DNA of 44,936 bases from Bacteroidota bacterium. GTDB lineage: Bacteria; Bacteroidota; Ignavibacteria; Kryptoniales; JAKASW01. Made by a program: the position numbers and the translations under genes. The stretch lies in assembly GCA_021845665.1 (NCBI GenBank), contig JAJZVO010000034.1, forward strand, positions 1 to 44,936, written 5' to 3'. Under the pieces are notes generated by a model. The model had not been told where the DNA came from. It saw only the letters and a list, made by a program, of their open reading frames with translations, and ran no database searches. This document shows positions 20,160-35,452 of the stretch, piece after piece. Within the stretch, counting starts at the first letter, position 1; every line of letters begins with the position of its first letter.

Positions 20160-21536
20160 ATGGAAAAACGCCGGCTCAACCGAAGCAGACATCCCAGAGT
20201 GTCAGAGCTCAAGACCGATTTTATAGTCGATCCGCTCTTGACACGGGCAGTTGGTGGTGAAGTATTAGGAAAGCTTAAAGCTCTCCTCTCTGAGGATTTG
20301 GGATTCCACGGTGCCGCTGTCAATAACGGCAGACACAATTTTCATTCCTTCCCCGCGAAGTTTCCCCCGCAGTTGTCGCGCCTGTTTATCGAGAATCTGA
20401 CTTCACCTGGCGATCTCGTCTTGGATCCGATGGCAGGATCCGGAACTACAATTGTGGAAGCCATGTCAACAGGCAGGACAGGACTAGGATTTGATATCGA
20501 TCCGCTGGCTTTACTCATAAGCAAGGTCAAAATCACACTTCTTGACCCGATTGCGGTGGAGCGTCAGGCTCACAGGGTGGCACAGGAGGCTGAACTTTCT
20601 CTTTTGCACTCATCAAAAATAGAGAAAGAGCTCAAGGATAGGTTCGACGAGCAGACAAAGGCATTCATAGACTACTGGTTCAGCGGTGAAACGCAGATCG
20701 AACTGATGGGTCTCCTTCTACAAATCGAGAAAGTCAGAGATCCGGATATCAGAGATTTCCTGAAGCTTACGCTCTCTGCAATTATCGTGACAAAATCCGG
20801 TGGTGTCTCACTTGCCTGGGACCTGGGCCATACTCGTCCGCATAAGCTTAATCAAGGCAAGACCAAGAAATACAAGGCGGCGATTCCTGAATTTGAGAAA
20901 CGGGCAGCCAGGAACATCTCGAGCCTTATCAAGAATGCCGAGTCAGCAAAAAGGAGCCGTGTTCAGTTTGGGAACGCAGAGGATCTGCCTCTCGAAGATG
21001 AAAGTGTCGATTTGATTGTTACATCACCCCCGTACGCTTCGAATGCCATAGATTACATGCGAGCGCATAAGTTTTCACTCGTGTGGCTCGGCATGGAAGT
21101 AAACCATCTGACCGAGCTTAGAAGCAAGTATATCGGGAGTGACAAAGTAACAGGATATGAGTTCGAATCTCTCCCGTCGCTCACAGAGAAGGTCATTTCG
21201 AGAATCTCCGCTCTCGATCCCAGAAAAGGAATGGTGCTCCGCAGGTATTTTTCGGAAATGACACGGGTGCTTAAAGAGATGCGGAGGCTACTTAAGCCGG
21301 GAAAGGTTGCCATCGTCGTTGTCGGCTCTTCTGTGATGCGCGGGATTGATACGGAGACCGACAGATGTCTTGTGGAAATTGGAGACTCGCTGAAGTTTCC
21401 TTGCGCCGGAATAGGAATCCGATTGCTCGACCGCGACAGACGCATGATGCCTACGAGCACAAAGAGCCGCACCGATTCACAAATAGAAAACCGGATGCAT
21501 CGGGAGTTTGTCCTCGCTTTTGTGAGACCAAAATGA
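20160..21536 (+). CDS. DNA methyltransferase of the NgoMIV-like system, N4-cytosine/N6-adenine type
   Basis: The 458-residue protein has the SAM-binding motif LDPMAGSGTTIVEA at residues 88-101, preceded by HNFHSFPAKFPPQL, and the catalytic TSPPY near 288 in VDLIVTSPPYASNAIDYMRAHK. SPPY marks an exocyclic-amino (N4-cytosine or N6-adenine) methyltransferase, and the S in SPPY slightly favours N4-cytosine. It should protect the sites cut by the adjacent endonuclease, whose start lies 13 bp downstream. Oddly, the characterised partner of NgoMIV is a C5-cytosine enzyme, so this pairing differs from the prototype. The start at 20160 is the first ATG. Rare short inverted repeats just upstream are not convincing operators. 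Confidence 0.9.
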   Translation: MEKRRLNRSRHPRVSELKTDFIVDPLLTRAVGGEVLGKLKALLSEDLGFHGAAVNNGRHNFHSFPAKFPPQLSRLFIENLTSPGDLVLDPMAGSGTTIVEAMSTGRTGLGFDIDPLALLISKVKITLLDPIAVERQAHRVAQEAELSLLHSSKIEKELKDRFDEQTKAFIDYWFSGETQIELMGLLLQIEKVRDPDIRDFLKLTLSAIIVTKSGGVSLAWDLGHTRPHKLNQGKTKKYKAAIPEFEKRAARNISSLIKNAESAKRSRVQFGNAEDLPLEDESVDLIVTSPPYASNAIDYMRAHKFSLVWLGMEVNHLTELRSKYIGSDKVTGYEFESLPSLTEKVISRISALDPRKGMVLRRYFSEMTRVLKEMRRLLKPGKVAIVVVGSSVMRGIDTETDRCLVEIGDSLKFPCAGIGIRLLDRDRRMMPTSTKSRTDSQIENRMHREFVLAFVRPK

Positions 21537-21549
21537 AAGGACGGGGTCG

Positions 21550-22407
21550 GTGAGTAAAATTGAGGATATGCGGCATCAGTATCAACGGAGAGTATCGGCA
21601 TCGCTCATTTATATGAAGCAGGGCAACATACCAAGCATGGCCGATGTAGGCAGCAAAGGGAGTACGAATATCTCCAAACACTTGGTCAAGACGCTTGGCT
21701 TCAAAATGAGAAAGAGTGCGACCGAGGGGCAGACAGCGGGAAAAGGATTTGAAGATTTAACAAGGGATTTTCTTCAAGAGGTCTTCGAATACTTGCAGAA
21801 CTTGCGACCGGGGAAATGGAGATTCTCTGTTCACGAGGAGATTTCCGCGTTTACCCAGTACAAGCATCTGGGGGAACTTACCCAGATTCTGAAGAGTGGG
21901 GTCCAGAAAGATATGCGGACAAACTTGAAGAGTCTGCTCGGCGATTATCTTGTCACACCTGACATCGTGATTTTGCGAGAGCCACTTGCTGATAGCGAAC
22001 TAGACCATAGCGGAGGATTGCTGGATGGAAGCAGATACCCGCAACACACTCCACTTAGAAAGAAAAATAGCGAGAGCGAACTTCTGCACGCGAGCATTTC
22101 ATGTAAATGGACCATCAGAAGCGACAGGGCGCAAAATGCCAGAACGGAAGCTCTCAACCTCATAAGAAACCGGAAAGGCAACACTCCTCACATCGCAGTT
22201 GTGACCGCTGAGCCCCTTCCGAGCAGAATCGCTTCGGTAGCTCTTGGAACTGGCGACATAGACTGCGTCTACCACTTTGCCCTCCCCGAGTTGCAGACTG
22301 CGGTGCGAGAGGTTGGAAATGAGACAGAACAGGAGCAGTTGGAGATGATGATAAACGGACGCAGACTGCGCGACATCGTTGACCTCCCGTTCGATTTGGC
22401 TATCTGA
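21550..22407 (+). CDS. NgoMIV-like type II restriction endonuclease
   Basis: The 285-residue protein matches the NgoMIV family in length and across its core, especially LLHASISCKWTIRSDRAQNA, then LNLIRNRKGNTPHI, VVTAEPLPSRI and LGTGDIDCVYHFAL. Catalytic residues of the PD-(D/E)XK-type site can be placed: E68 (GFEDL), D138 (TPDIVI), and S184-C185-K186 (SCK). The adjacent RSDR segment contributes to recognition in NgoMIV, which cuts GCCGGC as a tetramer. Recognition of GCCGGC or a close relative is inferred. The start is GTG at 21550, 13 bp after the methyltransferase stop, so the two are one operon. GCCGGC sites occur in the window and are not avoided. Confidence 0.92.
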   Translation: MSKIEDMRHQYQRRVSASLIYMKQGNIPSMADVGSKGSTNISKHLVKTLGFKMRKSATEGQTAGKGFEDLTRDFLQEVFEYLQNLRPGKWRFSVHEEISAFTQYKHLGELTQILKSGVQKDMRTNLKSLLGDYLVTPDIVILREPLADSELDHSGGLLDGSRYPQHTPLRKKNSESELLHASISCKWTIRSDRAQNARTEALNLIRNRKGNTPHIAVVTAEPLPSRIASVALGTGDIDCVYHFALPELQTAVREVGNETEQEQLEMMINGRRLRDIVDLPFDLAI

Positions 22408-28496: not shown

Positions 28497-28687
28497 AGAA
28501 TTTGAGAGGATCTTTGGACGGAGGCCGAAATCGGGAGGCTGGAAGCCGGACTGCGGCTCAGTTTGGCCCTTCCTGGTAAAACCTGAAATATCAGACAGAT
28601 TCAGGGACTGTCCCGAAAAGAGGCGATTTCGGTCGTTCAGGAGGCCTCTTCATCCGTCCCGATAAGTCTGCGGGCTTTTCGGGTTTC

Positions 28688-29231
28688 TCAAAGTGAGGCT
28701 GCCGGGTTATCTTCGTCCGACGGCCACATCGCAGGATTGTTTGAGATGTATTCACGGATACGGTTCAAATCCTGCTCGTTACGGATGACGTGCTCGTAGT
28801 AATCCCGCTGCCACACGCGTGATCCAGCGCCATTGTTGATTTGATTTATCTGTTTTGCGGAATTCATTTTGAATCTGCCGATGATTTTCGGGAGCAACAT
28901 CTGACGACGCTGCTTCATTCTTGTCTGTAAAGATTGATGTTCTTCTTCTTGTTGTTATCGCGGCAATTCATGAATTGCCGCGACGACCGTGGAAATGATC
29001 CGGCATCACGACGAAAGCGTCTGTCTGAACGTTCGGGATATCATTCCAGCATTCCGTGACTATCTCTCCAAGTCGATTCGTTTTCATTTTGCCGTCGATA
29101 ATCTCCCCAAAGATGCGCTGCCTTCCCTGCACACACATCGTCACGAAATACGCACCGGCCCGCGAGTAGTCGTAATTTCTCAGCCTGATCGAGTGACGGT
29201 GGTGTTTGTAGGGATCGTATGGCATTGTCAC
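28688..29231 (-). pseudogene. REP-associated tyrosine transposase (RayT, Y1_Tnp), disrupted
   Basis: The N-terminal piece (29231-28968; GTG at 29231 or ATG at 29225) reads HHRHSIRLRNYDYSRAGAYFVTMC, IFGEII and FVVMPDHFHG, carrying the HUH metal-binding motif HFH. The C-terminal piece (28918-28688, another frame) reads MLLPKIIGRFKMNSAKQINQ, VWQRDYYEHVIRNEQDLNRIREYI and NNPAMW, carrying the catalytic Tyr. These are the two halves of a Y1/RayT transposase that mobilises REP palindromes. A perfect 24-bp palindrome (28959-28982) lies at the break and introduces a TGA and a frame change. All landmark motifs are present but split, so it is a recent pseudogene. Confidence 0.85.
28959..28982. repeat. 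24-bp perfect palindrome inside the transposase
   Basis: CGCGGCAATTCA followed by its exact reverse complement. It lies right after the HUH motif codons, in the variable region of RayT genes where such short palindromes often sit. It may be a REP-like substrate of this transposase family. Confidence 0.75.
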
Positions 29232-29316
29232 ATCAAGCGGTCTGGTTCATCCGCAATGGGAAACATGTAGGCTGTCTGGGGCGGCCCAATATTTAGCCGA
29301 CCATGTTTTTGCTGTG
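29230..29316 (-). pseudogene. Relic of the 5' end of a second copy of the NotI-type methyltransferase gene
   Basis: Positions 29259-29316 align without gaps to 32223-32280, the leader and first codons of the intact methyltransferase, with 46 of 58 identical bases by my count. Read leftward the relic encodes IGPPQTAYMFPIADEPDRLM, against MEPTQIAFMFPVAEQPN in the intact gene; several differences are silent third-position changes, so it diverged as a coding sequence. The start codon is now ATT, and a TGA follows after 20 codons, directly before the RayT gene. No more of the methyltransferase is visible beyond the transposase. Probably the stump of an older restriction-modification copy. Confidence 0.65.
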
Positions 29317-29329
29317 GCTAGGAGAAAGC

Positions 29330-30250
29330 CTACTCGCTATCGTATTCCGCTTGCTCTTCCTTTGTCCTGCCGGATGATGTTGCCTGGGGTACGCCCAACT
29401 GCGATGAGACCCCCTTCGCATCGAGTCGCAAGCTTGATTTGATTTCCGAATTCACCTTCTCCTGCAGTCGATTAATGAATAGTTCTACAGGTGGGATATC
29501 GTCATTCTTTCTGAAGGCGTTGAACAGATCGTCGACAGTCGATGAGACGATCTCCGTGAGTCCTAAAACCAGCTTATCTCCGGTTGGCTTGAGATCATAG
29601 ATAGCAAAGACCGATGAATGCTTCTTGTGATAATCAAGTTTTCCAAGCCGATACTTGTTTAAGAAATAGTCAAAGATGGGCTGCTGAATTACCCAGAATA
29701 TTTTGCGGTTCCATTTTTCGAGGATAATTCCTTTGTTCAGGATCTGCGCAAACGTCCGTTTCCAGATGTCGTAATAATTGATGCCGAAATTGTAGCTGGC
29801 CGCTTTCGGTATCGTTCGATTCATCATGAAGTCTGTGAAGCCTTCAACTAACTTACCAGTGCTCGTGGTTTGACCGGTCTGGAATTCTATCACGGCAAAA
29901 TCCTCGACCACATTGCTTAAAGGCCTATGCTTGACCATTACGAAATCGAAGTTACCGATACCCTTTAGCCCGACCTCGCTGAAGATCAGGATGTTGTCTA
30001 CCGTACCGAAGTGGGCCTTAGCTATGTCCCGGAATACAGTTGCACTATCCAGAAAACGGCGCGGGCAAAGCGCTATGTCGCTTTCATCGACATGAGCGGA
30101 GCAGACTCCGAATGGATAAGAGACGAGTCTGCTCTTTTTGTAGCAACTCTTGTCAACAAAAGGACAAAGGCGCTTCTCTCTTGCTGTGGATGCAGCTTTG
30201 GAGGTGTTCTTCCAATAATAGCCGAACATTTCGGACGGGTATTTCGACAT
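29330..30250 (-). CDS. NotI-family type II restriction endonuclease
   Basis: The 306-residue protein has the NotI-family four-cysteine metal motif near the N-terminus: C29-P-F..C36..GVC50..C62-P (LCPFVDKSC, FGVCSA, LCPRRFLD), which holds an iron atom in NotI. The catalytic PD-(D/E)XK variant can be placed at D101 (GNFDFVMVK) and E121-x-Q123 (AVIEFQTGQ), like the E-x-Q of NotI, and the conserved WKRTFAQIL helix follows. It should cleave unmethylated double-stranded DNA at a GC-rich palindrome. The exact site is unknown. It starts 3 bp after the methyltransferase stop codon, an obvious operon. It is shorter than NotI itself (383), mainly in the C-terminal part. Confidence 0.87.
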   Translation of the reverse strand: MSKYPSEMFGYYWKNTSKAASTAREKRLCPFVDKSCYKKSRLVSYPFGVCSAHVDESDIALCPRRFLDSATVFRDIAKAHFGTVDNILIFSEVGLKGIGNFDFVMVKHRPLSNVVEDFAVIEFQTGQTTSTGKLVEGFTDFMMNRTIPKAASYNFGINYYDIWKRTFAQILNKGIILEKWNRKIFWVIQQPIFDYFLNKYRLGKLDYHKKHSSVFAIYDLKPTGDKLVLGLTEIVSSTVDDLFNAFRKNDDIPPVELFINRLQEKVNSEIKSSLRLDAKGVSSQLGVPQATSSGRTKEEQAEYDSE

Positions 30251-30253
30251 CCG

Positions 30254-32254
30254 TCATCCTTTCATGAAAGTGGACCACTCGCGTTCGATCTCGGATTCGG
30301 ACAGATTGTTCTCCAATATCCATCCGGTCATCCGGCCGCATGCCTGACAGAACGAATAGCTATCGAAGTCGACGATCGGCTCAGGTTTGTGCCATCGGAC
30401 AAGCTCATTACCGTTCCGGGGCTTGAGAACGAGTATAGTATCGTGCTTCAGGGACCGCAGATTTATGATGTGGACCGATATCGGGTTCTCCGAATGTACA
30501 ACGAATGCGTTAACGAGGGAAAACCCGGCCTGTTGTAAAGCTATGGTGAGCTGTGCCCAGGCGCCGGGCTTCCAGTGGTGGTAAGTGAAAATCAAACGAC
30601 CGTGCGGGCGCTTGAGCACCCGGTTACACTCCTTCCAGATGCGGCCTATAACGGAGCCAAACTTTTCTTCGTTCTCCGAATTCTCTGCGACAGCAGAATC
30701 ATGCGCGACATATTGCCAATTAGCTTCCCCGGGCAAGAAAGTCTTAAGCCAACAGCGGAAGAAATGTGAGAGGTCGCTATACTGGACGTTGTCAAAGTAC
30801 GGCGGATCAGTTACGACAAAATCTACCGATTCGGAAGGGAGAGACATGCGGCTTGAGTCGTTCTGAGCAACGAGGAACATCCTTTTCTTCCCTATGAATT
30901 CGTCGGCGGAAGACACCTCCCGTCCGATGTCGACTTCTTCCGGTACGGATGTTTCTGTCCACGTCCCGTTGACAAAACGTCTCTCGACAGGTTCTCTTGC
31001 CCATTCCCCGGCCGATACGATACGGTTCTCGAAGAGATTGTTGAGAGTGCCCGACGTGTTGCGGGAGAATACAGGATTGTTCTCCAGCGCGGTGTATGGG
31101 AATGAATACGCATGATGGGAAAAAACGTGCCTGATGGCCCCCGGTCTCCTCTTCGCGGCGCCTTTGTAGCCGCACAACGCGGAATTGAATTCGAGAGACG
31201 TCGACAGGAGCAGCGCCAGCCAGAGTACATGCTCACGAGGAACGCTCTGCAGGACCTCTTGGGATTGCGCGATATAGGCGAGCTGACGCGGGAAAAAAAG
31301 CTCAGAGAAATAGCGGATGTCTCTGTTAGTCAGATCGCGCGACTTTGGACCTTGAGGTATTTCAAAGTCGGACGGGGAGAACTCCGCATTCTTGGTTACC
31401 CAGCGTGCCGCCGCCTGGATGTAATCGTTGTCGGCTGAATCGACTTTCTTGAAAAAACTCTTGTGAATGTTGCAGTAACCGACGATGGCAAGAGGAACGT
31501 AGCGTTGCGCGAAGGGAACGGAGAGAATATCCGACGACTTTCCATTGATGCCCTGCTTGTGCGCATCCGCCCTGTCAATTATCGACCGGGAACTGCCGTT
31601 CGACGATATCTCCAAAGAAGGATAAAGGTCCACCAGGCTCTTCTGTGTGTCGTCAGGCTCCTCCCTCAGCGTGAAAGAGTCCACCACGACGACCTCACCC
31701 TGCGGGCCCATCTTTCGTTGGCCGTAAAGAGTAAACTGTATCTCGGCTGTCCCGCCGCAGGCAGGACACGAAGTCTGGTAATACTTGGATATGCGTCTAG
31801 CGAGCTCACTCTTGAAGGAACGGAAGGCGCTGACTTTTTCGGAAAGCGGGATGTTTGAGAGTGATGCTCTCGCCTGCAAAACAGGTATAGGGTCGATGTC
31901 ATAGCCGATGATATTGGCGCCGAGGCGGATCGCCTCGTGAAGCGTGGTTCCTCCACCCATCATCGGGTCAAGAATCGTGACACCTTCAAGTCCGCCGGGA
32001 GAATAGTAGTCTCTCCTCGAAGGATCGGGGACAAGCTGTTTCAATATGTGCCGGAAGGTAGTGCCAGAACGCCTCGCCCACCATTTATGAAGATATGTAT
32101 TCGGTCTGAACAGGTGCTTGTTGAATGATTCTATTTCGGCGAGTGTGTTCGCTTCCTCTTCCGGGAAGAAAGCATCTATCGGAACCGTATCGCCGAGCCG
32201 TACATTCGGTTGTTCCGCGACAGGAAACATGAAAGCTATCTGTGTCGGCTCCAT
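30254..32254 (-). CDS. DNA methyltransferase of the NotI-like system (DUF1156-like)
   Basis: 666 residues. An N-terminal segment (FNKHLFRPNTYLHKWWARRSGTTFRHIL) typical of DUF1156-like methylases precedes the SAM motif ILDPMMGGGTTLHEAIRLGANIIGYDIDP (about residues 94-122). A zinc-knuckle-like CPACGG (about 163) lies in the long insert, then VDFVVTDPPYFDNVQYSDLSHFF (catalytic DPPY, about 480), and a C-terminal CQACGR. DPPY marks exocyclic-amine methylation (N6-adenine or N4-cytosine). It protects the sites cut by the endonuclease encoded 3 bp downstream. The order motif I then motif IV is the same as in the other methyltransferase of this window. Its leader and first codons are duplicated as a relic at 29259-29316. 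Confidence 0.9.
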   Translation of the reverse strand: MEPTQIAFMFPVAEQPNVRLGDTVPIDAFFPEEEANTLAEIESFNKHLFRPNTYLHKWWARRSGTTFRHILKQLVPDPSRRDYYSPGGLEGVTILDPMMGGGTTLHEAIRLGANIIGYDIDPIPVLQARASLSNIPLSEKVSAFRSFKSELARRISKYYQTSCPACGGTAEIQFTLYGQRKMGPQGEVVVVDSFTLREEPDDTQKSLVDLYPSLEISSNGSSRSIIDRADAHKQGINGKSSDILSVPFAQRYVPLAIVGYCNIHKSFFKKVDSADNDYIQAAARWVTKNAEFSPSDFEIPQGPKSRDLTNRDIRYFSELFFPRQLAYIAQSQEVLQSVPREHVLWLALLLSTSLEFNSALCGYKGAAKRRPGAIRHVFSHHAYSFPYTALENNPVFSRNTSGTLNNLFENRIVSAGEWAREPVERRFVNGTWTETSVPEEVDIGREVSSADEFIGKKRMFLVAQNDSSRMSLPSESVDFVVTDPPYFDNVQYSDLSHFFRCWLKTFLPGEANWQYVAHDSAVAENSENEEKFGSVIGRIWKECNRVLKRPHGRLIFTYHHWKPGAWAQLTIALQQAGFSLVNAFVVHSENPISVHIINLRSLKHDTILVLKPRNGNELVRWHKPEPIVDFDSYSFCQACGRMTGWILENNLSESEIEREWSTFMKG

Positions 32255-32280
32255 GCTTGACCGACTATGTTTTTGCTGTG

Positions 32281-32611
32281 AGTTGGCATAGGTTTATTGA
32301 AATATAGCAAGAAGGAGGGGGAATTGCTGAAGGCATTTCCATTTGGCTACTACCCTAATTCTGCGGCCGCCGCGATAACAAGATTAGAACCGATTGCACA
32401 CAATTTGGACTGCCCGGTGTCCTCTCTATCGTCATGGGTCGGGCGCAAAATCGGGGTCACATCGAATTTCTCTGGCTATTAAAGTACAGAACGGATGGTT
32501 GTTCCTTTGCAATGGCCAAATCAATACAGTATTGAGAAATCGTTGCTTAGAATTGATTTTGGAATCGCTTTCTGATAACTTTCGATAAATTATCGAAGCA
32601 AGGCGACCGCA
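32281..32611. promoter_or_regulatory. Divergent regulatory gap between the NotI-like system and the four-gene operon
   Basis: This 331-bp stretch holds no convincing gene. Short open frames in it have no family features. It must carry the leftward promoter of the methyltransferase and the rightward promoter of the operon. It contains a NotI octamer GCGGCCGC at 32363-32370 and a perfect palindrome at 32581-32597. The right half is clearly AT-rich. Confidence 0.55.
32581..32597. promoter_or_regulatory. Inverted repeat TTCGATAA-A-TTATCGAA, candidate operator
   Basis: A perfect 8-1-8 palindrome ends 14 bp before the GTG start of the first operon gene. Size, symmetry and position fit the binding site of a dimeric helix-turn-helix repressor. 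The winged-helix protein encoded first is a candidate binder. Confidence 0.55.
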
Positions 32612-33193
32612 GTGCAGAAGAAGAGACTAACAGGCAAAACACTCATACTAATCCTCCTTTATGCGCCGACGGAAGGCGGAGGCCACGTGAACACTCCAAT
32701 CTCGGGCCGTACGCGATTGATGAAGATGGGATTCCTGTTCGGAGAAGAAATTGCAGATCAATTCAAAAAGGATGGAGGATTGCAGGAAGCAGATCTTCCA
32801 GAGTACTTCGCGTGGAAATACGGGCCTTTTTCAACGACGTTTTTGAATGATCTGGAGTTTCTCATTAACCAAGAGTACGTTCGCCCTCAAATGAGTTCTG
32901 GTACACCTTTAATTGCGGAACTTGCAGAATATGAATATTGGATTGACGACTTGGAAGAATTGGACGACCGCGAATACGTTGAAGAAACATTTGAGCTGAC
33001 AGATGATAAGGGTATCGCAAAAGCCAAGGAATTGTGGGGATTGTTGAGCACAAATCAACAGGAGTTACTATCTCAATTTAAGAGGGTACTTGTTCGAGCT
33101 CCTTTAGATCGAATACTTGAGTATGTCTACAAGAAATACAACGAAAAAGGCTATATAGATAAGTCACTGATACGCGACAAGTATCTTTCCTAA
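32612..33193 (+). CDS. YwgA/Panacea-like winged-helix protein, first gene of the unknown operon
   Basis: 193 residues from GTG 32612. The sequence shows LTGKTLILILLYAP, then ISGRTRLMKMGFLFGEEI, WKYGPFSTTFLNDLEFLINQEYV, and a FELTDDKGIAKAKELW ending. This 'GRTRLxKxxFL...YGPFS..L..DL..L...YV.....(x)LT..G' pattern is shared by YwgA-like proteins and the Panacea/SocA domain, which occur in toxin-antitoxin and defence settings. I infer a winged-helix fold and a protein- or DNA-binding role. It has no catalytic motif. The last base of its TAA is the A of the next ATG, so translation is coupled. It is visibly AT-richer than the housekeeping genes of the window. Confidence 0.7.
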   Translation: MQKKRLTGKTLILILLYAPTEGGGHVNTPISGRTRLMKMGFLFGEEIADQFKKDGGLQEADLPEYFAWKYGPFSTTFLNDLEFLINQEYVRPQMSSGTPLIAELAEYEYWIDDLEELDDREYVEETFELTDDKGIAKAKELWGLLSTNQQELLSQFKRVLVRAPLDRILEYVYKKYNEKGYIDKSLIRDKYLS

Positions 33194-33672
33194 TGGACTT
33201 CCTGCAAGTAATTTTCGCAGCGGCAAGCCTAGGTGTGAGCGTGATTTTTTCTGTTACGGAAAAAATCGGTGACCATTTGCGGGATGCTCGATCAAGCATG
33301 CGTGACGAGATATATCTCGCGTATAAAGAATTCAGCAATACAGTCAGTGCTGGGACAATTGACAACACGTCCATTGAGAGAATGAAACGTCTGCACTATT
33401 CATACGGGGAGGATTGTGTGAAAATTGTCTTTCTTGATTGGGCAATCAAGAAAGCGGCAAAAATCTTGCATCTCATGACTATTCTTGTCATCGTGTCGGT
33501 GGTGCTAGGTAATGTCCTTGATCTCAAGGGATCTCCAATATATAAGTCTGTGCTCATTGTCTACATGCCCATTGTCGCTCTGCTAGTTCAAGTCTTCATT
33601 GTTGCAGTGGCAACACAGGCCGCGCAATTTCTGAAGAGCATGAGGACACGCTACATCAGAAGAGAGTATTAA
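33193..33672 (+). CDS. Small multi-pass membrane protein, second gene of the unknown operon
   Basis: 159 residues. An N-terminal hydrophobic segment (FLQVIFAAASLGVSVIF) is followed by about 70 charged helical residues (EKIGDHLRDARSSMRDEIYLAYKEF...). Then two long membrane segments come (ILHLMTILVIVSVVLGNVL and SVLIVYMPIVALLVQVFIVAVA) and a basic C-terminus (KSMRTRYIRREY). No family was recognised. Membrane-tethered components without enzymatic motifs are frequent in abortive-infection systems, where they act as effectors or sensors; that reading is only a guess here. The start codon shares a base with the upstream stop and the next gene starts 2 bp after its stop. Confidence 0.75.
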   Translation: MDFLQVIFAAASLGVSVIFSVTEKIGDHLRDARSSMRDEIYLAYKEFSNTVSAGTIDNTSIERMKRLHYSYGEDCVKIVFLDWAIKKAAKILHLMTILVIVSVVLGNVLDLKGSPIYKSVLIVYMPIVALLVQVFIVAVATQAAQFLKSMRTRYIRREY

Positions 33673-33674
33673 TT

Positions 33675-34073
33675 ATGCCTGAAAAAGATATCGTTGAGGC
33701 TATCGTAAGCAACCTTGTGAGGATGGGATTCAAAGTTGCTACCGAGGTCGCAAATATCTATCGGAGCGCAGATATCGCTGCCCTTGATCATAACGGAAAA
33801 GTCTGGGTTATTGAATGTAAGATTTCAAGTATAGGCCAGGCGGTTCGACAGACGAGAATACATAAGTTGGGTGCTGATAAAGTTTTCATTGGAACTCCCT
33901 ACCGAAACACTCAGCAGGGGACTCTGGATATGATTAAAGAGGCGGGAGTTGGTCTGATTTATGTTATGCCGGACGGTTCCATTCACGAGGTGATTCAACC
34001 GTGCCGAGAGGAAAAGGCTTGGCCATCTGCAAAAGAAAAATTGAGACAACGAATTATACAGGTAACCCAATGA
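33675..34073 (+). CDS. PD-(D/E)XK nuclease-like protein, third gene of the unknown operon
   Basis: 132 residues. An N-terminal helix (EKDIVEAIVSNLVRMGFKVATEV, with E24) is followed by SADIAALDHNGKVWVIECKIS, giving D33-x13-E47-x-K49: a textbook PD-(D/E)XK nuclease core. QAVRQ after it provides the conserved Gln/Arg helix seen in RecB- or Mrr-like domains. Strands VFIGTP and VGLIYV complete the fold. The small size means a lone catalytic domain without its own DNA-recognition part, so it may act with the protein encoded next, whose ATG overlaps its TGA (ATGA). Cleavage of DNA is inferred from the motif; the substrate is unknown. Confidence 0.8.
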   Translation: MPEKDIVEAIVSNLVRMGFKVATEVANIYRSADIAALDHNGKVWVIECKISSIGQAVRQTRIHKLGADKVFIGTPYRNTQQGTLDMIKEAGVGLIYVMPDGSIHEVIQPCREEKAWPSAKEKLRQRIIQVTQ

Positions 34074-35452
34074 GCCGGCACATTTATCAATACAACATAA
34101 ATTCAGAGCAGCGCTTTTTTCTCGGTAAGGAACACCATGATTTGTACGATCTTATTGCATTAAATGGCAACATAGTTTCTCATGCACCTGCAGGAGTTGC
34201 AGCTTTCGTTGCGAACGCTGGCAAACCGTTCTACGTAGACCCGCAAACACATGCGTTTCAACATGCTACAATTCATCTTAAAAAGGACATTAGTGACAAA
34301 GAGAAAAAAGAGCCCCCGAATTATATCTTTCGTCCGTCAATTAAGAAATTGGCGCAGGAGCGGCTTGGTGAGCCGTTTTCAAAAGTGATTGATGAGGACC
34401 GTCCCTTGCGCCCGAAAGATTTCACAACCTCCGATAGTGAACTGAACGAAAGCCTCCTCGAGAAAGTCTGTCAGAATACGGTCGATTTCCAATTGAAAAC
34501 CCTGTCCGATTCAATTGATGATGAAGCTCGCGAACTATTGGGGGGATCCTCAGCTTTCAAGCCAGAATTTATTCTTGCACCCTACTTCTATCTTTCGCCA
34601 CTTTCTTACGAGAATTGGCTAAATCTAAACTTGACCTTCTACAACAAGACCAAGCAAATAGTTTCAGACCTCCCGGTGTTTCTTGCCTTGGTGATATCAA
34701 AAGAGGCATTAGAAGAAGGATTAAGTGAAATCGTTGCTAAGATCAAAAAGACTAAGCCGGACGGAATTCTTTTATGGATTGACGACCACGTTGAGGAAGA
34801 ACTCAATAAGAAAGAAATATGGAGATACGTTGATCTTCTGAGTGCACTTAAGAATACAACTGAAACAATATATAATTCTCATGGTGGGTACTTATCAATT
34901 TTACTCGGCCATGAAGAAACGGGTCCGTTGCTTGACGGAGTTGGACACTCTATAAACTATGGCGAGAGTCGCGCGGTTGTTCCAGTAGGGGGTGGCATTC
35001 CGATGGCAAGGTTCTATATGTTCGAAATGCACTCCAGACTCCGTTGGGGAGACGCGTTGGGCATCGCAACCTCTAACGGATTTCTGAATTCAGTGAAAGA
35101 TTATCTTCAGAACATTTGCTCGTGTATTCAATGCGCTTCGTTGCTTAAGGAGACTAAATCGGCAGCTGTTACTTTTGACCTTTATGGTGATAGTAATGAA
35201 CTTACTTTCCGAAGGCGTTCTGGCGCAATTGTCAAGCTCGATTATCCAACAAAGGAAGCTAAGCAATTTGCGTCCAGACATTATCTTTACAATAAGGCAC
35301 GGGAATTCGATACGGTACGAAGCGACGATCTTACCACTTTGCTGAACAGACTCAAACAAACATATGAAAAGATATCTCCAACGGCCGAGGAAGAAATAGT
35401 TGCCAACCTGTTTAACTGGGAGCAAGCGCTTGTAGGTCGTCTTAAGAAGTAG
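34070..35452 (+). CDS. Putative TIM-barrel enzyme with CxCxxC motif (TGT-like?), fourth gene of the unknown operon
   Basis: 460 residues from the ATG at 34070, which overlaps the upstream stop. A longer in-frame ATG at 34001 lies within the nuclease gene. Alternating strand and helix segments suggest an alpha/beta barrel: KPFYVDPQTHAF (52-63), PVFLALVIS (202-210), PDGILLWIDD (230-239), HGGYLSILLG (271-280), and VVPVGGG (303-309). Near the C-terminus ICSCIQC places C350, C352 and C355, followed later by RHYLYNKAREF. The CxCxxC...H arrangement is like the zinc site of tRNA-guanine transglycosylases and their DNA-modifying relative DpdA. The relation is tentative because the canonical catalytic motifs are not obvious. 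No named family was recognised with certainty. Confidence 0.6.
   Translation: MSRHIYQYNINSEQRFFLGKEHHDLYDLIALNGNIVSHAPAGVAAFVANAGKPFYVDPQTHAFQHATIHLKKDISDKEKKEPPNYIFRPSIKKLAQERLGEPFSKVIDEDRPLRPKDFTTSDSELNESLLEKVCQNTVDFQLKTLSDSIDDEARELLGGSSAFKPEFILAPYFYLSPLSYENWLNLNLTFYNKTKQIVSDLPVFLALVISKEALEEGLSEIVAKIKKTKPDGILLWIDDHVEEELNKKEIWRYVDLLSALKNTTETIYNSHGGYLSILLGHEETGPLLDGVGHSINYGESRAVVPVGGGIPMARFYMFEMHSRLRWGDALGIATSNGFLNSVKDYLQNICSCIQCASLLKETKSAAVTFDLYGDSNELTFRRRSGAIVKLDYPTKEAKQFASRHYLYNKAREFDTVRSDDLTTLLNRLKQTYEKISPTAEEEIVANLFNWEQALVGRLKK

What the first reader, a model, noticed from the sequence alone, without database searches (positions are those of the whole stretch)
29330..32254. NotI-like restriction endonuclease paired with a DUF1156-like methyltransferase
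The endonuclease has the four-Cys metal motif and the E-x-Q catalytic variant of NotI, a rare-cutter family with few characterised members. The gene is shorter than notI and lies 3 bp after a 666-residue methylase with zinc-knuckle-like insertions. Its specificity could be new.
Basis: partly seen in the sequence, partly recalled or inferred. Interest (0 to 1): 0.62.

Follow-up and report, generated by a model that had tools for sequence, protein, structure and literature searches.

The report
NotI-family restriction–modification gene pair
These two neighbouring genes are most likely a working DNA-cutting defence enzyme of the NotI kind and the methylating enzyme that protects the host from it; the same pairing occurs in bacteria of several phyla, so it is a good but fairly ordinary addition to a known kind of system whose target sequence is still unknown.

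Summary
The 306-aa protein at 29330-30250 (-) belongs to the NotI family. It scores above the Pfam cut-off, its predicted fold matches crystal NotI far better than anything else (Z 22.9, next entry 7.6), and all four cysteines and the D...E-x-Q residues align with NotI's. The 666-aa gene ending 3 bp upstream is a class I DNA methyltransferase with a TDPPY motif. It is only DUF1156-like: it scores below that family's cut-off.

The pair is not a curiosity of this genome (Candidatus Kryptoniota). Eighteen of 33 loci encoding close methyltransferase relatives have a NotI-family gene directly adjacent. In the window's own lineage the two gene trees agree across several phyla, and synonymous changes greatly exceed amino-acid changes. 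The same methyltransferase clade also pairs with other NotI subfamilies and stands alone in twelve genomes. A congener carries a broken endonuclease, and this genome a decayed second copy.

Most likely it is a functional Type II system. The recognition sequence is unknown: site avoidance gave no answer. Adenine methylation, hence a site other than NotI's GCGGCCGC, is favoured but unproven. New member of a known kind.

The parts
29330..30250 (-). NotI-family restriction endonuclease (R), 306 aa; Cys4 metal site C29/C36/C50/C62, catalytic D102, E122, Q124
   Evidence: PF12183 1e-9; profile hit on 3bvq/3c25 1.5e-9; AF2 model pLDDT 83.7 matches 3c25 with Z 22.9 over 266 residues, next entry 7.6
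30254..32254 (-). Cognate DNA methyltransferase (M), 666 aa, DUF1156-like, motif I LDPMMGGGTT (95-104), long presumed target-recognition insert (about 160-455), motif IV TDPPY (482-486)
   Evidence: PF01555 9.4e-13, PF06634 below cut-off; 22-member alignment; AF2 model pLDDT 84.5, class I methyltransferase fold
32255..32331 (-). Conserved upstream leader of M (probable promoter region); homology of all four Kryptoniota copies starts at 32330/32331
   Evidence: blastn against the three other copies; flank comparison
29242..29316 (-). Diverged copy (about 77%) of the start of the M gene directly behind R: remnant of a second copy
   Evidence: (77% over 73 bp)
28675..29285 (-). Broken REP-associated tyrosine (IS200-like) transposase gene joined to the M-start remnant
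   Evidence: NCBIfam NF047646 1.6e-6; similar arrangement in the congener locus L044; intact homologue PF01797

Best explanation
This is a functional Type II restriction-modification system. M (666 aa, AdoMet-dependent, most likely adenine-N6) methylates one short palindromic site in the host genome. R, a NotI-type PD-(D/E)xK nuclease in which Q replaces the lysine (D102, E122, Q124) and which carries a Cys4 metal-binding N-terminal domain, presumably dimerises and cuts the unmethylated site in incoming DNA. M and R are probably transcribed together, M first, and move between genomes as one cassette. Shown here: both ORFs intact, NotI fold and catalytic/metal residues, methyltransferase fold and motifs, adjacency and shared phylogeny with other pairs, purifying selection. 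Inferred: co-transcription, activity, dimerisation, metal identity, methylated base. Unknown: the recognition sequence.
For: R is NotI-family by profile, by alignment of all catalytic and Cys residues with NotI and by fold (Z 22.9 to 3c25 against 7.6 for the next entry). M has motif I and TDPPY, conserved in 22 relatives, and a Rossmann methyltransferase core. Of 33 loci encoding close M relatives, 18 have a NotI-family R directly adjacent; the R tree (clade of 13, support 95/97, all partnered with this M type) and the M tree agree on the grouping of window, L064, L065, then L106 and L066. dN/dS between this M and the congener's is 0.08-0.11, and for the R N-terminal part about 0.05, so both have been kept under selection. 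Adenine-N6 is favoured by TDPPY, by the description of DUF1156 relatives as N6-MTases with the TRD inserted in the core (PMC12839542), and because the R subfamily of L067/L068, there paired with this M type, is elsewhere paired with D12-class adenine methylases.
Against: No expression, cleavage or methylome data. The congener's R is disrupted by an 11-bp insertion and a nonsense codon, and this genome's own second copy is decayed, so loss of R is common in the genus. A DUF1156-like M in another congener sits beside a HaeII-type endonuclease (PF09554 4e-114); if that enzyme has HaeII's site RGCGCY, its M would have to methylate cytosine, which weakens the adenine inference.
Confidence: 0.85

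Rival explanations
1. R has lost activity in this strain and only M works, as a solitary methyltransferase, as seems to have happened in the congener and in Anaerolineae.
For: Congener R is frameshifted and has a nonsense codon while its M is intact; twelve related Ms have no adjacent R, and PF12183 found nothing in those genomes; the second copy in this genome is decayed.
Against: In the window R is uninterrupted and keeps every catalytic and Cys residue; dN/dS of its N-terminal part against the congener is about 0.05.
Confidence: 0.1
2. M belongs to a larger multi-gene defence system (Hma or BREX-related, with helicase and ATPase), and the NotI-like gene is only a neighbour.
For: M's best PADLOC/NCBIfam matches are DUF1156_MTase, HmaB and PglX.
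Against: Those matches are weak (81.5 bits against a cut-off of 1000 for NF042963); none of the genes flanking the pair that were scanned matches a helicase or large ATPase family; the adjacent gene is a NotI-family R in 18 loci of several phyla, and in the window's lineage R and M share a phylogeny.
Confidence: 0.03
3. The pair works as a Type II system with the same site as NotI (GCGGCCGC) or EagI (CGGCCG), M being a cytosine-N4 methylase. This is a rival only to the specificity and chemistry part of the best explanation.
For: Same fold and catalytic residues as NotI; CGGCCG is mildly under-represented in the sample of this genome (148 against 202 expected) and in three other hosts; an M relative next to a HaeII-type enzyme could be a cytosine methylase.
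Against: TDPPY is the usual adenine-N6 form; PF01555 partners of other NotI relatives read SPPYW, the usual N4-cytosine form (L045, L046). R is only about 16-19% identical to NotI. GGCC itself is depleted in the same samples, so the CGGCCG signal is not specific.
Confidence: 0.15

Closest known systems
NotI (Nocardia otitidiscaviarum; PDB 3bvq, 3c25; PF12183)
   Same: Fold over 266 residues (Z 22.9), Cys4 site, D...E-x-Q active site
   Different: 306 against 383 residues, 16-19% identity, long NotI insert before the catalytic core absent; partner methyltransferase of DUF1156-like type; specificity unknown
Other NotI-family pairs on plasmids and in the same phylum (Thermus, Klebsiella, Acinetobacter, Sagittula, Sedimenticola; L045/L046)
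   Same: NotI-family R next to a methyltransferase gene
   Different: Partners are C5-cytosine, PF01555 N4/N6 or D12 adenine methylases, not DUF1156-like ones; R 24-31% identical
NotI-family R plus DUF1156-like M modules in Chloroflexota, Myxococcota, Nitrospinota, Gemmatimonadota, Zixibacteria (L063-L093, L106)
   Same: Same M family (43-83% identity) and adjacent NotI-family R; trees of both genes agree for the window's clade
   Different: Some have R before M with another R subfamily (L067, L068, L070; L069); twelve are solitary M
DUF1156 methyltransferases of Hma / BREX-related systems (NF042963, HmaB, PglX)
   Same: Core motifs, N-terminal DUF1156-like segment, insert between motif I and motif IV
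   Different: Much shorter, below the family cut-offs, no helicase or ATPase partners seen; paired with a Type II nuclease gene

Membership tests
NotI family of Type II endonucleases (PF12183) | Score above Pfam gathering cut-off | tested here: met
   38.5 bits against 22
NotI family of Type II endonucleases (PF12183) | Four cysteines of the N-terminal metal site | tested here: met
   C29, C36, C50, C62 align with NotI C42, C55, C65, C81 and are invariant in 12 members
NotI family of Type II endonucleases (PF12183) | Catalytic D...E-x-Q (Q instead of K; PMC4081073) | tested here: met
   D102, E122, Q124 align with D160, E182, Q184
NotI family of Type II endonucleases (PF12183) | NotI fold | tested here: met
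   AF2 model against 3c25: Z 22.9, 266 residues, rmsd 3.6
NotI family of Type II endonucleases (PF12183) | Sequence-specific cleavage, Fe in the Cys4 site, dimer | not testable with these tools
   Needs protein
Type II restriction-modification system | Adjacent R and M, inherited together | tested here: met
   3-bp gap; 18 loci with adjacent pairs and congruent trees in the window's clade
Type II restriction-modification system | M modifies the site that R cuts | not testable with these tools
   Needs methylome and cleavage assay
N6_N4_Mtase (PF01555) | Score above cut-off | tested here: met
   49.1 bits against 26.7
DUF1156 (PF06634) | Score above Pfam gathering cut-off | tested here: not met
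   20.6 bits against 24; only 6 of 22 relatives reach E 0.01
Hma / anti-phage DUF1156 system (NF042963) | Score above the curated cut-off | tested here: not met
   81.5 bits against 1000
Hma / anti-phage DUF1156 system (NF042963) | Helicase and ATPase partner genes | tested here: not met
   None among the scanned genes flanking the pair

The most novel reading that the evidence does not exclude
The window pair represents a separate NotI subfamily that has evolved together with a dedicated DUF1156-like adenine methyltransferase, recognises an A/T-containing site unlike any NotI/EagI-type site, and spreads as a two-gene cassette between distant phyla.
Probability: 0.5. Interest if true: 0.42.

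Novelty: new member of a known kind. Interest (0 to 1): 0.33.

Why it matters
It adds an intact, testable member to a small group of Fe/Cys4 endonucleases of which NotI is the structural reference, and ties a subgroup of the NotI family to one methyltransferase family across several phyla. A new site would be a useful reagent, and the exchange of R partners on one M lineage is a handle on how specificity is kept matched. No close solved structure of the M family was found.

Tried and rejected
Site avoidance: palindromes of 4, 6 and 8 bp were counted in 0.44 Mb of this genome and 0.4 Mb of each of three other hosts. Nothing convincing: in this genome CGGCCG is at 0.73 of expectation, together with several unrelated 6-mers; GCCGGC, the site I would expect (from my own knowledge) for the NgoMIV-type enzyme in the same window, is also hardly avoided (0.90, rank 31 of 64). 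So the test is not shown to detect a resident system here, in line with PMC4687349 (life span of a system affects avoidance; abstract seen). Whole-genome GCGGCCGC count: 97 here, 164 in the congener, below the control pattern in both, which reflects composition at least in part.

Direct single-protein scan of genome contigs with R found nothing; the multi-family R alignment was too diverse for a pattern scan. phmmer with R alone does not reach NotI in the PDB; a profile does. No match in the phage collection, and only weak methyltransferase hits in viral contigs. The NotI structure paper is not held, so DNA-contact residues could not be compared. The hypothesis that the M-start copy behind R is a dispersed repeat was rejected: only two places in the genome.

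Full report
Observation. On the minus strand the window holds M (32254 to 30254, 666 aa) and R (30250 to 29330, 306 aa). The M stop codon and the R start are 3 bp apart and an AAAGGA sequence lies just upstream of the R start. Both ORFs are uninterrupted. The finding's coordinates cover exactly this pair.

R is a NotI-family endonuclease. Pfam PF12183 matches residues 24-221 at 38.5 bits (cut-off 22). An alignment with eleven other family members shows 19 invariant residues, among them C29, C36, C50, C62, E92, D102, E122 and Q124. A profile from it finds crystal NotI (3bvq/3c25) at 1.5e-9, with CPF, SC, GVC, VCP, FDW and EIQ aligned; counted on the NotI chain these give C42, C55, C65, C81, D160, E182 and Q184, which agrees with the Cys4 iron site and the Q-for-K active site described for NotI (PMC4081073; PMC4176176). 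AlphaFold2 with 15 aligned sequences gives pLDDT 83.7. Foldseek ranks the four NotI chains first (E 1e-11 to 1e-14, next 2e-3), and VIA-align gives Z 22.9 over 266 residues against 7.6 for the next entry.

M is a DNA methyltransferase related to, but not formally in, DUF1156. PF01555 is met (49.1 bits, cut-off 26.7); PF06634 is not (20.6, cut-off 24). Twenty-two relatives share the motifs DPMMGGGT and TDPPY(F/Y). The model (pLDDT 84.5) is a class I methyltransferase with about 300 residues inserted between the motif I part and the motif IV part. The best structural matches (Trm11, Trm14, and CcrM by Foldseek) cover the core only. A study of BREX-like systems describes DUF1156 methyltransferases as N6-MTases with the recognition insert placed after core strand 2 (PMC12839542).

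The pair is a recurrent module. A scan of 84,980 species genomes with an M alignment gave 80 loci, of which 33 belong to the window's M clade by identity (43-83%; L063-L093 and L106, with the partial L095). Eighteen of these have a NotI-family gene directly next to M (positions), in two cases broken or partial (L063, L079), and one more (L082) shows a remnant. In the window's clade, M and R trees agree: window and congener with L064 (Myxococcota) and L065 (Chloroflexota), then L106 (Nitrospinota), L066, and a group from Chloroflexota, Gemmatimonadota and Zixibacteria. Elsewhere in the M tree R lies before M and is from other NotI subfamilies: L067/L068/L070, whose R relatives pair with D12-type adenine methylases in Thermus and in the same phylum, and L069, whose R falls with NotI itself on long, uncertain branches. 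Twelve Ms, mostly Anaerolineae, have no neighbouring R; PF12183 found none in those genomes, though that search also missed two loci with R fragments. So this M lineage is repeatedly paired with NotI-family nucleases, has exchanged partners, and has repeatedly lost them.

History in the genus. The window belongs to a genus that includes a Candidatus Kryptoniota MAG (G303, record JAHECO010000014.1). G303 carries M at 83% identity, followed by an R with an 11-bp insertion and a nonsense codon. The window's own genome has a second, decayed pair on contig C17: M with stops and frameshifts, R reduced to about 44 recognisable residues. A further locus of G303 keeps only M-start fragments around a REP-type transposase, near a dehydrogenase gene that also lies near the window pair. 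All copies share homology from the same point 77 bp upstream of M, as expected for a cassette. M between window and G303 has dN/dS 0.08-0.11 and the first 155 codons of R about 0.05 with saturated dS: both genes were kept functional for most of that time, and the G303 break is recent.

Mechanism. The evidence supports an orthodox Type II system: M protects, R cuts. Adenine-N6 methylation is my preferred reading (TDPPY; D12 partners for one R subfamily; published N6 assignment of DUF1156 relatives), which would exclude GCGGCCGC since it has no A. The contrary hint is an M relative beside a HaeII-type enzyme. I could not obtain the recognition site; the avoidance test was uninformative, and GCCGGC, the site expected for the NgoMIV-type system in the same window, is not avoided either.

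Verdict. The broader pattern (NotI-family R with DUF1156-like M across phyla) was not found in the papers I could search, but REBASE could not be consulted, so I claim no priority for it.

Noticed in passing
window 20160-22407 (+): A second Type II pair in the same window: a PF01555 methyltransferase (458 aa) followed by an NgoMIV-type endonuclease (PF09015, 2e-100, 285 aa).
   Followed up: partly
window 28675-29316 (-) and L044:4177-5078: A REP-type tyrosine transposase gene is joined to a copy of the first codons of the M gene in both the window and the congener; in the congener a longer M leader follows it as well. Looks like remnants of tandem module copies, but the order differs between the two genomes.
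   Followed up: partly
window 32612-35452 (+): Four-gene run (193, 159, 132 and 483 aa) divergent from the pair, almost without family matches; the 132-aa protein has a weak nuclease-like match (NucS, MmcB-like) and the first a weak PADLOC PDC-M19A match. Possibly a further defence operon.
   Followed up: no
L074, L078, L080, L084, L085, L088, L089 and similar: Anaerolineae genomes keep solitary members of this M family, several in pairwise similar gene neighbourhoods, suggesting a methyltransferase kept for a purpose other than restriction.
   Followed up: partly
L055:3125-6420: In another congener (G299) a DUF1156-like M (745 aa) sits beside a HaeII-type endonuclease (PF09554, 4e-114).
   Followed up: no
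L012, L013, L015, L016, L017: In one genus of the same phylum two NotI-family genes of different length lie in opposite orientation within about 1.5 kb of each other.
   Followed up: no
window M residues 183-185: The Kryptoniota Ms have lost the CxC pair of a zinc-ribbon-like CPxC...CxC motif that most relatives keep.
   Followed up: no
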